Source: a virus. Taken from it: a stretch of DNA of 26,363 bases. Shown here one piece after another: positions 8,376-23,222 of the stretch. The translations under genes were made by a program, and so were the position numbers. The DNA lies in the IMG/VR virus record IMGVR_UViG_3300005935_000109, positions 1 through 26,363 of that record; one strand, given 5' to 3'. The notes under the pieces were generated by a model. The model was given only the letters and a program-made list of their open reading frames with translations, was not told where the DNA came from and did no database searches. Positions within the stretch are counted from its first letter, which is position 1, and each line of letters begins with the position of its first letter.

Positions 8376-8615
8376 ATGAACATCACATTCGAGTTACCTG
8401 TTTTTATCTTCGGTATCGTGCAGGTTGTAAAACAACTGGGGCTACCTTATATCTCTAGTTCAAAAGTCCTGCCTCTTTGGGCTGTCGTGCTTGGTGGAGT
8501 CCTGAATCCTGTTTACATGACAGCATGGACACCAGAAACTATTTTGACTGGAGCTTTCATCGGTCTAGTTACAACTGGGATCGTCGCTGGAGCTGATAAG
8601 TATGTAGGAGTTTAA
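8376..8615 (+). CDS. Small membrane protein of the lysis cassette (second holin candidate)
   Basis: The 79-residue protein has hydrophobic segments at about residues 5-22, 31-50 and 56-74 and few charges (K18, K29, a DK pair near the end). It follows the amidase by 10 bases, so it is probably co-transcribed with holin and endolysin. An accessory holin or antiholin role is inferred from topology and position; I do not recognise a family. Its stop overlaps the stop of the converging minus-strand gene by four bases (TTAA at 8612-8615). Confidence 0.6.
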   Translation: MNITFELPVFIFGIVQVVKQLGLPYISSSKVLPLWAVVLGGVLNPVYMTAWTPETILTGAFIGLVTTGIVAGADKYVGV

Positions 8616-8791
8616 CTTTCCCACTCTATAATCACAACCTGGGAGATCTTAGGCGCAACAAGCGCTTTGTTCCGCGAACCTAGTCTAAAGGCAGTACGCC
8701 TTTCTATTCTAGACCAGTGTTTTAGAACATGATCTATGTACGACATATTGTCCCTAGCAGGTAGTAGAGATTTAGGTCTTGAGATGGTCAT
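8612..8791 (-). CDS. 59-residue hypothetical protein, last gene of the leftward operon
   Basis: The frame runs from ATG at 8791 to TAA at 8612 and starts MTISRPKSLLPARDNMSY. It is basic in its first two thirds, with a helical RIERRTAFRLGSR stretch, and has a beta-like hydrophobic end (ISQVVIIEW). It begins 13 bases after the stop of the preceding gene and ends tail-to-tail with the last late gene, sharing TTAA. Its position fills an otherwise empty gap in the operon, which supports coding. No function can be given. Confidence 0.55.
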   Translation of the reverse strand: MTISRPKSLLPARDNMSYIDHVLKHWSRIERRTAFRLGSRNKALVAPKISQVVIIEWES

Positions 8792-8804
8792 ATATATGAA
8801 GTTA

Positions 8805-8969
8805 CTATTTCAGTAGTCTCTCCAGGTGCGGGATCACTTTTGGGTTGAGCGTTCGCTCGCTAATCGGCTTCTCCAAGTCTCCATCGCGCCATAGATTCCA
8901 CGGGCTTAGTTGGTTTACCCAGCTTAAAAACCGCTTCCACTCCTTTAAGTTTTCTATCTTTTCAGGCAT
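8805..8969 (-). CDS. 54-residue hypothetical protein
   Basis: I place the start at ATG 8969, giving MPEKIENLKEWKRFLSWVN at the N-terminus. A longer frame opens at 9029, but its extra residues would lie wholly inside the alpha-CTD-like gene. With the short start the overlap with that gene is 16 bases. The protein is Trp-rich (four Trp in the first 30 residues) and charged, with a helical start and a C-terminal HLERLLK. I recognise no family. Confidence 0.5.
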   Translation of the reverse strand: MPEKIENLKEWKRFLSWVNQLSPWNLWRDGDLEKPISERTLNPKVIPHLERLLK

Positions 8970-9172
8970 AGCCCCTGTTTTTTTAATGCTTTTTTGATTT
9001 GATCGACTGCGTATGGACCGATACTCCATTTAGTAAGAAGCTCTTTCCTAGTTAAAGCAGTCAAAGTCGGTATATCACCAATGCCATTATACACCAATGC
9101 GTTGTAAATGCGATTGGGAAGGTATAGCAACTCGATTGGATGATAGCCTTTTTGTATTTGATCCCAGCCCAT
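8954..9172 (-). CDS. Stand-alone RNA polymerase alpha-subunit C-terminal-domain-like protein
   Basis: All 72 residues fit the bacterial RpoA C-terminal domain, a helix-hairpin-helix fold. Residues 13-26 (IELLYLPNRIYNAL) match the alpha-CTD start helix, with R21 and N24 in the positions of the E. coli DNA-contact residues R265 and N268. GIGDIPTLTALTRKELL matches the second helix, WSIG (G52) the G296 turn, and DQIKKALKKQGLCLK the last helix and GLSL end. The positions of K298 and S299 differ. In the host the domain binds UP-element DNA and activators. A free phage copy could bind DNA upstream of promoters or compete with the host domain; that is inference. The upstream gene stops 3 bases before its start. 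Confidence 0.7.
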   Translation of the reverse strand: MGWDQIQKGYHPIELLYLPNRIYNALVYNGIGDIPTLTALTRKELLTKWSIGPYAVDQIKKALKKQGLCLKR

Positions 9173-9174
9173 GG

Positions 9175-9321
9175 TTAAGGTTTAAATTTAGTTTTAATAG
9201 CCAAAGCGCACTCAATTCCAATCAAACGCATCACCAGCTCGGCGCGGTTCTTAGTACCGAACCTCCCTGACAATACGTCCTCTATCAGTGAATCTAGCAG
9301 TTCTGTTACTTGTTTATTCAT
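9175..9321 (-). CDS. 48-residue hypothetical protein sharing its N-terminus with the gene at 9993-10334
   Basis: ATG at 9321 to TAA at 9175 encodes MNKQVTELLDSLIEDVLSGR and a helical remainder ending KTKFKP. The first ten residues are nearly identical to MKKQVTELLDKLF of the 113-residue gene in the same operon, and the DNA is too (9294-9321 versus 10307-10334). The gene overlaps the 3' end of the hexapeptide-repeat gene by 8 bases and ends 2 bases before the alpha-CTD-like gene. It could be a small DNA-binding or adaptor protein; nothing in it decides this. Confidence 0.55.
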   Translation of the reverse strand: MNKQVTELLDSLIEDVLSGRFGTKNRAELVMRLIGIECALAIKTKFKP

Positions 9322-9952
9322 TTATTAGATTTGGTGCTATTGCGGACTCTCGACTGATTTCTGTTTTCTTGCCTTCGTATTCTATTGTTACTGTGTCAGA
9401 TTTATCAACATCGATACCAGTATGCCATTTAAATAATTCTGCATCGAACTCATCCATACTCTTGATGTGGTCTATCATTTCTTGCGGCATATCATCCCAC
9501 ATATTCTCTTTCTTTTTGATTTTACTTGCGTCTACCTTCGACCAGTCTGAACCTCCTTTGAGGTACAAGTCAAAAGCTGTATTAGCCCTGGGCTTCCAAC
9601 CAAAACCATTCTTGAGTTTATTTAGTACTTCGCTGTATTTTTTTTTTGACACCTCTTTCCCGAATATAGTAGGCTTGTCTTCTTTCTTCGGTCCGAATAT
9701 AGCCTTGAAAACTCCTTTAGATTCTTTCACGCCATACGAGCAGGACACGCCATCCGAGTAGGACACGCCATCCGAGTAGGACACGCCATTCGAGTAGGAC
9801 ACGCCATCCGAGGAGTACACGCCATCCGAGTAGGACACGCCATTCGAGTAGGACACGCCATACGAGCAGTACACGCCATCCGAGCAGTACACGCCATACG
9901 AGCAGTACACGCCATTCGAGCAGTACACGCCATTCGAGCCTTGGTTTGTCAT
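9314..9952 (-). CDS. Protein with twelve xGVxxS hexapeptide repeats and a conserved-looking C-terminal domain
   Basis: The protein has 212 residues. Residues 7-78 are twelve consecutive six-residue repeats of the form [N/Y/D]-G-V-[Y/S]-[C/Y/S]-S. A GVFKAIFG boundary follows, then a charged domain (residues about 85-212) with FGKEVSKKKYSEVLNKL, WKPRANTAFDLYLKGG, MWDDMPQEMIDHIKSM and a C-terminal EISRESAIAPNLINE. I recall similar repeat-plus-domain proteins among phage hypotheticals but know no function. The period of six with V, S and G at fixed phase would suit a small beta-solenoid, which is inference. It belongs to the leftward operon. Confidence 0.75.
   Translation of the reverse strand: MTNQGSNGVYCSNGVYCSYGVYCSDGVYCSYGVSYSNGVSYSDGVYSSDGVSYSNGVSYSDGVSYSDGVSCSYGVKESKGVFKAIFGPKKEDKPTIFGKEVSKKKYSEVLNKLKNGFGWKPRANTAFDLYLKGGSDWSKVDASKIKKKENMWDDMPQEMIDHIKSMDEFDAELFKWHTGIDVDKSDTVTIEYEGKKTEISRESAIAPNLINE
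9729..9944. repeat. Exact-period 18-bp tandem repeat, 12 copies
   Basis: The word acgccat recurs every 18 bases from 9729 to 9927 without a single indel. Between copies lies a variable cgag(c/t)a(g)(g/t)ac segment. Each unit encodes one hexapeptide of the gene above. High nucleotide identity between units, beyond what the protein needs, points to recent expansion by slippage or recombination. Confidence 0.95.
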
Positions 9953-20993: not shown

Positions 20994-23222
20994 TTGACCA
21001 CTGTAAGCATACCAAAGGTGTTTGATAGGATGTTTGAGCCTTCTCGGTACAAAGCTTCTTACGGAGGAAGAGGTAGTGCTAAATCTCATAGTTTCGCACA
21101 GGCTCTAGTTTTAAAGGGTGCTGAGAAGCCTATGCGGTTCTTGTGTTGTAGGGAAATCCAGAAGTCGATCAAGGACTCTGTTAAACAACTGCTAGACGAC
21201 AAGATACGAGATAGTGGATTAGGATGGTTTTATACTTCTACACAGGGCGAGATTAGAGGGAAGAACGGTACTGTTTTCTTGTTTGCGGGTTTAAGGAACA
21301 ATCCTGAAGCTGTGAAGTCAATGGAGAATATCGATGTTTGCTGGGTCGAGGAAGCCAGTACGGTTTCACGAAGGAGTTTAGATCTATTGATACCAACTAT
21401 CCGTGCTGAAGAATCAGAGATATGGTTCACCTGGAATCCTGACAGTGAGTATGATCCTGTAGATGTTATGTTTAGAGGAGAGAAAGGGCCACCACCTGAC
21501 TCAATCATCATACCTGTATCTTATGAAGAGAATCCGTATTTCCCTAAAGTTCTGATGAAAGAGCTGGAGTACGATAAAGAAGCTGACAACGGGAAGTATT
21601 TGCATGTTTGGAAAGGAGACTACGCTGACGCTCAAGACGGGAAGATGTACCCTAGCGAGATCCTGGAATGGCAGAAACAGTTCCTTGAAGATGGTACTAA
21701 GGTTGGAGATTGGACTGTGTTCGCTAACTTCAACAGGAAACATACTTACGTTATGGCAGCAGATGTTGCGGAGGGAGTCGGGTTAGATAGCTCAACAGCT
21801 CACATCTTAGACCTTACAGACGGTGAAGTGGTAGCAGAGTTCGTTTCAAATATTATAGAGCCTGATTTGTTTGGTCATGAGTTGTACAACTGGGCTAACA
21901 AGTACGGAGGGTGTTTGATCGCACCTGAACGCAACAGTTGTGGACTGGCTACAGTCATCAAGCTAAAGGAGTTAGGAGCCATTGTATATTTTGAAGAAGA
22001 GAAAGAAAGTGGTACAAACAAGGTAACTAAAAAACTAGGTTGGAGAACAACAAGCAAGAGTAAGCCGTTGATGCTGTATGATTTAAAAGATGCTTTAACA
22101 GAAAAGCTAATTAAAGTCAAGTCTCGAGGATTGTATAAAGAATTGAAGACTTACAACCCTGAAGATTTACGACAGATACGGTTCGATCCAGAGCAGACTC
22201 GTCACTGGGATCGGGTGATGTCATGTTTTGTAAAAGGAACGTCGGTGTTGACTGACAAAGGGCAGAGGCCGATTGAGTCAATTAAGGTAGGGGATAAAGT
22301 TCTTACGAGAGAGGGGTACAAAAAGGTTATAGCGACTTGTGGCCATGTAAAAGAAGTAACAACAAACATTGGGCTTACAGGGACGCTAGATCATCCTGTC
22401 TTCTGTAACGACAACGAAATAAAAGACTTGTCATACGTTAGCACTTGCGATAAGCTGTACGCATGGGACTCAAAAGCACAAAAAATAGAGAGACTATCAC
22501 ATACAGAGATGTCAAATACCACAGATACCCTGATGCAACTAGACAAAACCACCGAGTTTACTACAGAGGAGGGGCGAAATGGAAAAAAGAAGGCGTTTAC
22601 CTGCATAGGCAAATCTGGATTGATGATTTCGGGGACATTCCAGAAGGATATGTTGTCCATCATAAAGACCATGACCCGAGCAATAACAAGCTCGAAAACC
22701 TTGTGTGTATGTCAAAAACAGAGCACAACAAGCTCCACGGCAATACTCCCGGGGCAAAAGAAAGGGGAAGAGAGTTGGCCAATAAAAACAGGCAAAAGCT
22801 CACCGAAGGGCTACGAAGGTATCACAAAAACAAAGAAGGGAAAGATACTGAGTGCGTTCTTTGTGGACAAGTCTTTAAAAGTGCTACTTGGAATGCAAAG
22901 TTTTGTTCTAGGTGGTGTCTCCAGAAAAGCAATAACGCAAAACGACGGAATCCAAAGAAAGAAAAAACATGCTCTATCTGTAAGAAAAAATTCAAAACAA
23001 GCATCCCTCATCAAGAAAGATGTTCAAAAGAGTGTCATGCCCTTAGAAGAAGGAAGCACTTACCAGACGGTTTATAACTTGCAAGTGCAGGGTTGCCCAG
23101 AGTACTTTGCTAACAACGTGCTGGTCCATAACTGTGCTATCACCTGGCAAATGAGAGACAAGTTTGTAAGAAGAGACGATAAAGAGCTTGAGAAGGCTAT
23201 TGACAACTATATTTATTCTTAA
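20994..23222 (+). CDS. terL: Terminase large subunit precursor, interrupted by an intein
   Basis: The 742-residue precursor splices to 439 residues, a normal TerL length. ATPase: Walker A GGRGSAKS (24-31), Walker B IDVCWVEEAS (113-122, catalytic E119/E120), coupling motif FTWNPDS (145-151). RNase H-like nuclease: AADVAEG (D257), IAPERN (E312) and HWDRVM (D406). The intein is residues 411-713, so the mature joint reads HWDRVMS-CAITWQMRDKF. TerL pumps DNA into the prohead and cuts concatemers, so packaging depends on splicing. The start is TTG 20994; an in-frame stop at 20982 excludes longer starts and there is no SD. An HNH gene overlaps it in another frame (22463-23077). Confidence 0.92.
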   Translation: MTTVSIPKVFDRMFEPSRYKASYGGRGSAKSHSFAQALVLKGAEKPMRFLCCREIQKSIKDSVKQLLDDKIRDSGLGWFYTSTQGEIRGKNGTVFLFAGLRNNPEAVKSMENIDVCWVEEASTVSRRSLDLLIPTIRAEESEIWFTWNPDSEYDPVDVMFRGEKGPPPDSIIIPVSYEENPYFPKVLMKELEYDKEADNGKYLHVWKGDYADAQDGKMYPSEILEWQKQFLEDGTKVGDWTVFANFNRKHTYVMAADVAEGVGLDSSTAHILDLTDGEVVAEFVSNIIEPDLFGHELYNWANKYGGCLIAPERNSCGLATVIKLKELGAIVYFEEEKESGTNKVTKKLGWRTTSKSKPLMLYDLKDALTEKLIKVKSRGLYKELKTYNPEDLRQIRFDPEQTRHWDRVMSCFVKGTSVLTDKGQRPIESIKVGDKVLTREGYKKVIATCGHVKEVTTNIGLTGTLDHPVFCNDNEIKDLSYVSTCDKLYAWDSKAQKIERLSHTEMSNTTDTLMQLDKTTEFTTEEGRNGKKKAFTCIGKSGLMISGTFQKDMLSIIKTMTRAITSSKTLCVCQKQSTTSSTAILPGQKKGEESWPIKTGKSSPKGYEGITKTKKGKILSAFFVDKSLKVLLGMQSFVLGGVSRKAITQNDGIQRKKKHALSVRKNSKQASLIKKDVQKSVMPLEEGSTYQTVYNLQVQGCPEYFANNVLVHNCAITWQMRDKFVRRDDKELEKAIDNYIYS
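22224..23132 (+). other. Intein in TerL (303 residues)
   Basis: Block A begins at C1: CFVKGTSVLTDKGQRPIESI, then KVGDKVLTREGYKKV. Block B is GTLDHPVF (T54, H57). Strand NDNEIKDLSYVSTCDKLYAW ends the N-terminal half near residue 81. Block F is VYNLQVQGCPEYFANN (283-298) and block G is VLVHN, with N303 followed by C+1. All residues needed for standard splicing are present (C1, H57, H302, N303, C+1). Between residues 80 and 285 the frame is open but shows no LAGLIDADG or HNH motif; composition is Lys/Ser/Thr-rich and irregular, because that DNA encodes the HNH nuclease in another frame. Confidence 0.9.
22463..23077 (+). CDS. HNH homing endonuclease nested out of frame inside the terL intein
   Basis: The 204-residue frame lies one base before the terL codon frame. 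Residues 10-60 are the typical phage HNH lead (KYHRYPDATRQNHRVYYRGG, then GVYLHRQIWIDDFGDIPEGY). The HNH core is VVHHKDHDPSNNKLENLVCM plus SKTEHNKLH (H66/H67, N75, H88/H92). Residues 126-195 hold two zinc modules: C131/C134/C148/C152 and C170/C173/C187/C191. ATG 22463 lies in the codons for A80-W81 of the intein, and TAA 23075 lies in the block F codons for Y-N; an in-frame TAA at 22451 blocks a longer start. It presumably cuts intein-free terL. No SD, as in the rest of the genome. Confidence 0.88.
   Translation: MGLKSTKNRETITYRDVKYHRYPDATRQNHRVYYRGGAKWKKEGVYLHRQIWIDDFGDIPEGYVVHHKDHDPSNNKLENLVCMSKTEHNKLHGNTPGAKERGRELANKNRQKLTEGLRRYHKNKEGKDTECVLCGQVFKSATWNAKFCSRWCLQKSNNAKRRNPKKEKTCSICKKKFKTSIPHQERCSKECHALRRRKHLPDGL

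What the first reader, a model, noticed from the sequence alone, without database searches (positions are those of the whole stretch)
22224..23132. Intein in terL with its homing endonuclease encoded in a different, overlapping reading frame
Usually an intein's endonuclease is an in-frame domain of the precursor. Here splicing blocks A, B, F and G are in the terL frame, while a complete HNH nuclease with its own ATG, stop and two zinc modules sits one base out of frame. It fills the gap between the two splicing halves: ATG at intein residue 80, stop within block F. The intein frame has no stop over the 205 nuclease codons; at 61/64 per codon, chance survival is about 1 in 10,000, and the third frame has a stop at 22486. 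So the DNA appears dual-coding: spacer of a cis-splicing intein and a free-standing nuclease. The nearest known arrangements are split inteins separated by a free-standing nuclease gene and intron-nested HNH genes. I know of no described out-of-frame nested version.
Basis: partly seen in the sequence, partly recalled or inferred. Interest (0 to 1): 0.95.

Follow-up and report, generated by a model that had tools for sequence, protein, structure and literature searches.

The report
TerL inteins with out-of-frame homing nuclease
In a phage DNA-packaging gene, a self-removing protein insert (an intein) carries its DNA-cutting enzyme hidden in a different reading frame of the same DNA, and the same always-one-base-shifted design recurs in scores of unrelated phages, so it is a widespread, recently mobile element that annotation pipelines mostly miss.

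Summary
terL (20994-23222) contains a class 1-like intein (22224-23132). A complete HNH nuclease gene (22463-23077) lies in its -1 frame and fills the gap between the splicing halves. It is not unique. Searches recovered 94 non-redundant loci (about 160 in all) with the same layout, in phages of Acinetobacter, Tetrasphaera and Rhodobacteraceae and in contigs binned with Bacteroides and archaea. The phase is always the same, and no HNH of this family is in frame. Across the 94 loci the intein frame holds 0 stops over the nuclease, against 244 expected from synonymous-codon shuffling. Nuclease relatives without an intein hold 163 stops against 165 expected. Substitutions in the overlap follow the HNH codons, so the intein's middle is a tolerated 'shadow' translation. 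Predicted structure agrees: splicing domain and HNH protein fold confidently, the shadow mostly does not. Acinetobacter phage Highwayman and the intein-free Acba_21 differ by exactly one 981-nt element plus flanking co-conversion, a homing footprint. Mini-inteins and split inteins at the same site look like loss and fracture products. The nearest published case is the ShiLan element: an out-of-frame HNH in a methylase gene, without an intein. Splicing, nuclease translation and cleavage remain untested.

The parts
20994..22223 (+). terL N-extein (ATPase and most of the nuclease domain); insertion falls in the C-terminal nuclease motif (...HWDRVMS | CAITW)
   Evidence: Terminase_3 2.7e-37; open frame
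22224..23132 (+). intein, 303 aa in the terL frame, first residue Cys, last residue Asn
   Evidence: Hint_2 2.2e-9, Intein_splicing 1.7e-5; Foldseek best hits are inteins, gp41-1 E 3e-5
22224..22451 (+). N-terminal splicing half with block A and block B (T-L-D-H at 22383-22394)
   Evidence: alignment A9; pLDDT 91-97 over residues 1-40
22463..23077 (+). HNH homing endonuclease gene, 204 aa, own ATG and stop, -1 frame relative to terL/intein
   Evidence: HNH_3 3e-17; phrog_15471 2e-25; AF2 mean pLDDT 87
22595..22729 (+). HNH_3 catalytic domain (HNH residues 45-89)
   Evidence: invariant H48, H66, N75, N79, H88, H92 in alignment A8
22853..22918 (+). zinc module 1 of the HNH protein (C131, C134, C148, C152)
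   Evidence: invariant columns of A8
22970..23035 (+). zinc module 2 of the HNH protein (C170, C173, C187, C191)
   Evidence: invariant columns of A8
22464..23069 (+). 'shadow': intein-frame reading of the HNH gene, open but not conserved as protein
   Evidence: no stop in the terL frame; pLDDT about 40 over most of residues 87-275; substitution pattern in relatives
23070..23132 (+). C-terminal splicing half, blocks F and G (VYNLQVQGCPEYFANNVLVHN)
   Evidence: HintC profile 74.5 bits; pLDDT 85-93
23133..23222 (+). C-extein of terL beginning with the +1 Cys nucleophile, and stop

Best explanation
The element is a mobile intein whose homing endonuclease is a separate gene, nested out of frame. 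terL mRNA is read straight through. The intein's two Hint halves fold together, the roughly 200-residue shadow between them loops out, and the intein excises itself to restore TerL (inferred). Ribosomes also start inside the intein at the HNH start codon, shifted by -1, and make a free-standing HNH nuclease with two zinc modules (inferred from start codons, Shine-Dalgarno enrichment and conservation). The nuclease cuts intein-free terL at its catalytic motif, and repair from the occupied copy installs the whole intein+HNH block with flanking co-conversion (footprint shown, cleavage inferred). Selection holds the HNH frame as protein. In the intein frame it holds the splicing blocks and, across the overlap, only the absence of stops (shown). 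The phase is probably fixed because the other out-of-frame phase is full of unavoidable stops.
For: Same layout in 94 non-redundant loci, all with intein frame = HNH frame +1. Stops in the intein frame over the HNH: nested 0 against 244 expected; no-Hint 163 against 165; split inteins 87 against 94. An HNH-blind scan by the N-terminal Hint half gave 67 nested HNH, all the same phase, 11 mini-inteins and no in-frame HNH. In the overlap 49% of substitutions fall on HNH third positions, which are intein second positions, while in Hint and extein 53% fall on intein third positions. Shine-Dalgarno match at HNH starts, median -5.8 kcal/mol against -2.9 and -2.0 in controls, p 7e-11 and 1e-9. AF2: Hint ends 85-97, shadow about 40, HNH 87. 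Highwayman against Acba_21: terL 2283 nt against 1302 nt (a 981-nt difference), all 15 flanking differences within 163 nt upstream and 13 nt downstream of the site, none in the other ~2600 nt, and +1 Leu changed to Cys. L107/L108: element 85-100% identical per 100 nt, flanks mostly 50-76%. Mini-inteins L279/L280 match L273 except for a clean 573-nt loss of the HNH gene at an 8-bp repeat.
Against: No splicing, translation or cleavage was measured. The window's own HNH start has no Shine-Dalgarno match (-0.7 kcal/mol). One 36-residue helix inside the shadow is predicted at about 80 pLDDT. The window's HNH is a long branch in the tree. 'Nested' loci were partly defined by an open intein frame, which the HNH-blind scan mitigates.
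Confidence: 0.88

Rival explanations
1. The HNH is expressed as a fusion to the intein N-half by programmed -1 ribosomal frameshifting rather than from its own start codon.
For: The HNH is always in the -1 frame relative to the intein, which is the phase a -1 frameshift would give.
Against: Slippery heptamers occur near the HNH entry in only 17 of 94 loci, 0.68% of positions against 0.40% in a control region. HNH starts are enriched for Shine-Dalgarno matches. Free-standing relatives such as BP10 start at the same N-terminus. Phase is also explained by stop content: the other frame averages about 21 stops per gene.
Confidence: 0.07
2. It is really a split intein: the open frame between the halves is coincidence, and TerL is made by trans-splicing or not at all.
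For: Relatives with true stops between the halves exist (L151, L170, L187, L191, L205 and others).
Against: In those relatives stops occur at the neutral rate (87 seen, 94 expected) and the phases of the halves vary. In the nested class there are 0 stops against 244 expected and one phase only. terL is one continuous ORF here.
Confidence: 0.03
3. Artefact: an in-frame HNH intein shifted by paired sequencing or assembly indels.
For: Single metagenomic contig in the window.
Against: Identical in two other assemblies and the same in sequenced phages TJE1, Highwayman and LS06-2018-MD07. The HNH has its own start and stop.
Confidence: 0.01
4. The nested HNH is a domesticated packaging nuclease that helps terminase rather than a homing enzyme, and only its gene happens to sit in the intein.
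For: Free-standing relatives lie beside terL/terS, and HNH proteins near terminases are known to aid packaging in some phages (cited in PMC12613952, its reference 24).
Against: Homing footprint with co-conversion. Patchy occurrence: of 42 records sharing Highwayman's terL, only Highwayman carries this element's DNA. Recent loss of the HNH with TerL kept. Some free-standing copies carry relics of the terL target motif. Nearest solved structure is the homing enzyme I-HmuI.
Confidence: 0.06

Closest known systems
ShiLan element (Mycobacterium phage ShiLan gp65; Arsenault, Gosselin and Gogarten 2025, PMC11855218)
   Same: Out-of-frame HNH gene with host reading frame kept open; same phase (host frame = HNH frame +1); patchy, homing-like distribution.
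   Different: Inserted directly in a methylase gene with no intein splicing domain. HNH of a different architecture, weak match only (31.6 bits against 245 for the window's HNH on a similar profile). Here the HNH sits inside an intein in an essential packaging gene.
Fractured genes: split inteins separated by a free-standing endonuclease gene (Dassa et al. 2009, recalled)
   Same: HEG with its own start and stop between Hint halves; relatives of this HNH occur in exactly that arrangement in terL.
   Different: Here the intein frame is continuous over the HNH, so splicing is expected in cis.
Mycobacteriophage TerL inteins (PMC5050341)
   Same: Inteins in phage terL; shown there to splice and, for two of them, to cut intein-free alleles.
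   Different: Those two cutting inteins carry in-frame LAGLIDADG domains, and the insertion sites are in the ATPase domain; ours are mostly in the C-terminal nuclease motif.
I-HmuI and other HNH homing endonucleases of phage introns
   Same: Nearest solved structure by sequence (1u3e, E 0.0046) and by fold; a free-standing ORF inside a splicing element.
   Different: Intron ORFs need no host-frame readthrough; here both frames must be translatable.

Membership tests
Class 1 intein | Cys/Ser at position 1, TxxH in block B, C-terminal Asn followed by Cys/Ser/Thr | tested here: met
   C1, T54-L-D-H57, H302-N303, +1 Cys
Class 1 intein | Hint fold continuous with the host ORF | tested here: met
   Pfam Hint_2/Intein_splicing; Foldseek gp41-1 intein; single ORF
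Class 1 intein | Protein splicing | not testable with these tools
   needs expression
Canonical bifunctional intein with in-frame homing endonuclease | Endonuclease domain in the intein reading frame | tested here: not met
   HNH in the -1 frame; intein-frame interior has no endonuclease match
Split intein with free-standing HEG (fractured gene) | Stop or break between the N and C halves of host gene and intein | tested here: not met
   terL frame has 0 stops over the HNH; met in relatives such as L151 and L205
HNH homing endonuclease | HNH catalytic domain with conserved residues, zinc modules, own start and stop | tested here: met
HNH homing endonuclease | Element found in one allele and absent from a near-identical allele, with co-conversion | tested here: met
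   for the Highwayman/Acba_21 relative, not for the window's own element
HNH homing endonuclease | Site-specific cleavage of the empty allele | not testable with these tools
   needs a cleavage assay
ShiLan-type hidden HNH | HNH out of frame with open host frame | tested here: met
ShiLan-type hidden HNH | No splicing domain around the HNH; HNH of the same family | tested here: not met
   Hint halves present here; ShiLan HNH 31.6 bits, no Hint around it

The most novel reading that the evidence does not exclude
Out-of-frame nesting is the normal form of a large, overlooked family of phage terL homing inteins: a dual-coding selfish element in which the intein's interior is a non-functional shadow of its own endonuclease gene, the phase is fixed by stop-codon statistics, and decay of the open frame produces mini-inteins and split inteins.
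Probability: 0.75. Interest if true: 0.88.

Novelty: new variant of a known kind. Interest (0 to 1): 0.84.

Why it matters
It shows that an intein can carry its homing enzyme as an overlapping gene instead of a fused domain, which lets a nuclease gene with its own stop codon ride inside an essential protein. It supplies a large natural set for studying overlapping genes: one frame selected as protein, the other only for the absence of stops. Intein-free, nested, mini and split forms occur at the same terL site, so the homing cycle and the origin of split inteins become testable. Annotation pipelines label these loci simply as terminase and miss the nuclease.

Tried and rejected
Paired-indel artefact: rejected by identical independent assemblies and by sequenced phages with the same layout. 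In-frame HNH relatives: none of this family; the only 'inframe' flags (L177, L185) had HNH scores of 47-50 bits and weak Hint matches, and were not followed. Programmed frameshifting: no useful enrichment of slippery sites. Empty site for the window's own terL: no alignment reached the C-terminal site in L004-L068, so the empty-site test rests on the Highwayman relative. DNA alignment of mini against nested intein with MAFFT misplaced the gap and was redone by prefix/suffix comparison. First Hint alignment A9 was too diverse to scan with. First accession tried for ShiLan was another phage. HNH tree: too weakly supported to root or count origins; only >=3 changes are forced for the nested state.

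Full report
Check of the observation. The terL ORF 20994-23222 is open. Its product matches Terminase_3 (2.7e-37) and, at residues 411 onward, Hint_2 and Intein_splicing. The intein is 22224-23132: Cys1, T54-L-D-H57, block F/G VYNLQVQGCPEYFANNVLVHN and a +1 Cys. The ORF 22463-23077 encodes 204 aa with HNH_3 at 3e-17 and phrog_15471 at 2e-25, one base out of frame. Its upstream stop lies 3 codons before the ATG; the third frame has 16 stops. Two other IMG/VR records carry an identical 912-nt element.

Recurrence. A terL relative of only 47% identity (L027) showed the same layout. tblastn of the HNH against phage records then found Tetrasphaera phage TJE1 and Acinetobacter phage Highwayman, and with the Highwayman HNH as query also Rhodobacteraceae phage LS06-2018-MD07, all annotated only as terminase large subunit. 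Alignment-based scans of viral contigs and of prokaryote genomes (contigs binned with Bacteroides, Parabacteroides, Thermoplasmatales, Methanomethylophilaceae and Methanimicrococcus) were classified with profiles of the two Hint halves. After dereplication at 90% there were 133 HNH loci: 94 nested in a continuous intein, 14 with split or broken inteins, 22 without Hint, 3 truncated. All 94 have the same phase. A scan that used only the N-terminal Hint half, blind to the HNH, gave 67 nested HNH loci, all in that phase, 11 mini-inteins and none in frame. The scans keep only the best 80 loci each, so these numbers are lower bounds.

Selection on the two frames. Shuffling synonymous codons within each HNH gene keeps protein and codon usage. 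For the 94 nested genes it predicts 244 stops in the intein frame; none is seen. In 22 no-Hint genes 163 are seen against 165 expected; in 14 split loci 87 against 94. The other out-of-frame phase shows no such departure in the nested class (2017 against 2079), where it averages about 21 stops per gene, which explains why only one phase is used. Across 20 pairs of nested loci, substitutions in the overlap fall 29/22/49% on HNH codon positions 1/2/3, and the shadow reading is no better, and usually worse, conserved than the HNH reading. In Hint and extein DNA they fall on intein third positions (53%). So the overlap is conserved as nuclease, and in the intein frame only as 'no stop'.

Structure and expression. 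AlphaFold2 of the window's intein-frame protein gives 85-97 pLDDT for most of the two Hint halves and about 40 for most of the shadow; its best PDB matches are inteins (gp41-1, E 3e-5). The HNH frame gives 87; its nearest solved relative is I-HmuI. 91 of 94 nested HNHs have a start codon near the conserved N-terminus, with Shine-Dalgarno pairing well above two controls (p 7e-11 and 1e-9). The window's own start lacks it. Slippery heptamers are not notably enriched.

Mobility. The insertion lies in terL active-site motifs. Most are at the C-terminal nuclease motif NH|C-x-D-A-x-R-Y within a few residues; a few are at the first RNase H motif or Walker B, the motif names being my reading of the sequence. 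Highwayman is the only one of 42 records with similar terL that carries this element's DNA. Against Acba_21 its terL is longer by exactly 981 nt, the 327-codon intein. All 15 flanking differences lie within 163 nt upstream and 13 nt downstream of the site, and the residue after the site is Cys instead of Leu. This is the footprint of homing with co-conversion. L107 and L108 share an element that is mostly 98-100% identical in flanks of mostly 50-76%. Mini-inteins L279/L280 equal nested L273 (terL flanks 593-598 of 600 nt identical) minus 573 nt, with GCAAAAAC at both ends of the lost stretch, so the HNH and its shadow are dispensable for keeping the intein. Of the 22 no-Hint loci, the ten listed include nine in which an intact terL directly precedes the HNH gene; four loci (L102, L133, L201, L225) show a second copy of the D-x-x-RY target motif just upstream of the HNH, and L077 a single one there. 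This suggests that the same nuclease family also homes on its own to terL.

Known and new. Papers searched (open-access PMC only) hold one close precedent, the ShiLan element: an out-of-frame HNH in a phage methylase, same phase, without splicing domain, and with a different HNH architecture (PMC11855218). The two mycobacteriophage TerL inteins shown there to cut have in-frame LAGLIDADG domains (PMC5050341). Split inteins separated by an endonuclease gene are known (recalled: Dassa 2009), and relatives here show that state too. I found no report of an intein with its endonuclease in another frame, but subscription journals and preprints were mostly not searchable.

What is shown and what is inferred. 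Shown: architecture, recurrence, single phase, purging of stops, frame-specific conservation, an insertion/co-conversion footprint, and loss and split forms. Inferred: cis-splicing past the shadow, internal initiation of the HNH, cleavage of empty terL, and the direction nested to split.

Noticed in passing
window 9728-9939 (within the minus-strand ORF 9314-9952): 18-bp tandem repeat, 11.8 copies, encoding a run of 6-residue SNGVYCS-like repeats at the N-terminus of an uncharacterised protein.
   Followed up: no
L151 2000-4700: terL and intein fractured around the same HNH: Hint halves still in the nested phase but with 12 stops over the HNH, and the C-half has its own ATG; looks like a step from nested to split intein.
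   Followed up: partly
L131 2900-3740: HNH gene behind terL, followed by a second copy of the terL C-terminus; the intein-phase frame over this HNH is still open although no Hint halves are detectable.
   Followed up: partly
L102 about 625-650, L133 about 147-171, L225 about 3016, L201 about 3372: Short relic copies of the terL LDAxRY target motif directly upstream of free-standing HNH genes, in the HNH frame.
   Followed up: partly
L127 3209-3451: Record in which the N-terminal Hint half is out of frame with the rest of the intein: pseudogene or sequencing error.
   Followed up: no
L293, L294, L298, L300, L315-L317, L319, L322: Same intein/out-of-frame HNH design at other TerL motifs (apparently first RNase H motif, Walker B region), with shorter or more distant HNH genes.
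   Followed up: no
L240 6786-9668: ShiLan methylase re-read here: hidden HNH frame 8510-9101 is in the same relative phase as all terL cases.
   Followed up: yes
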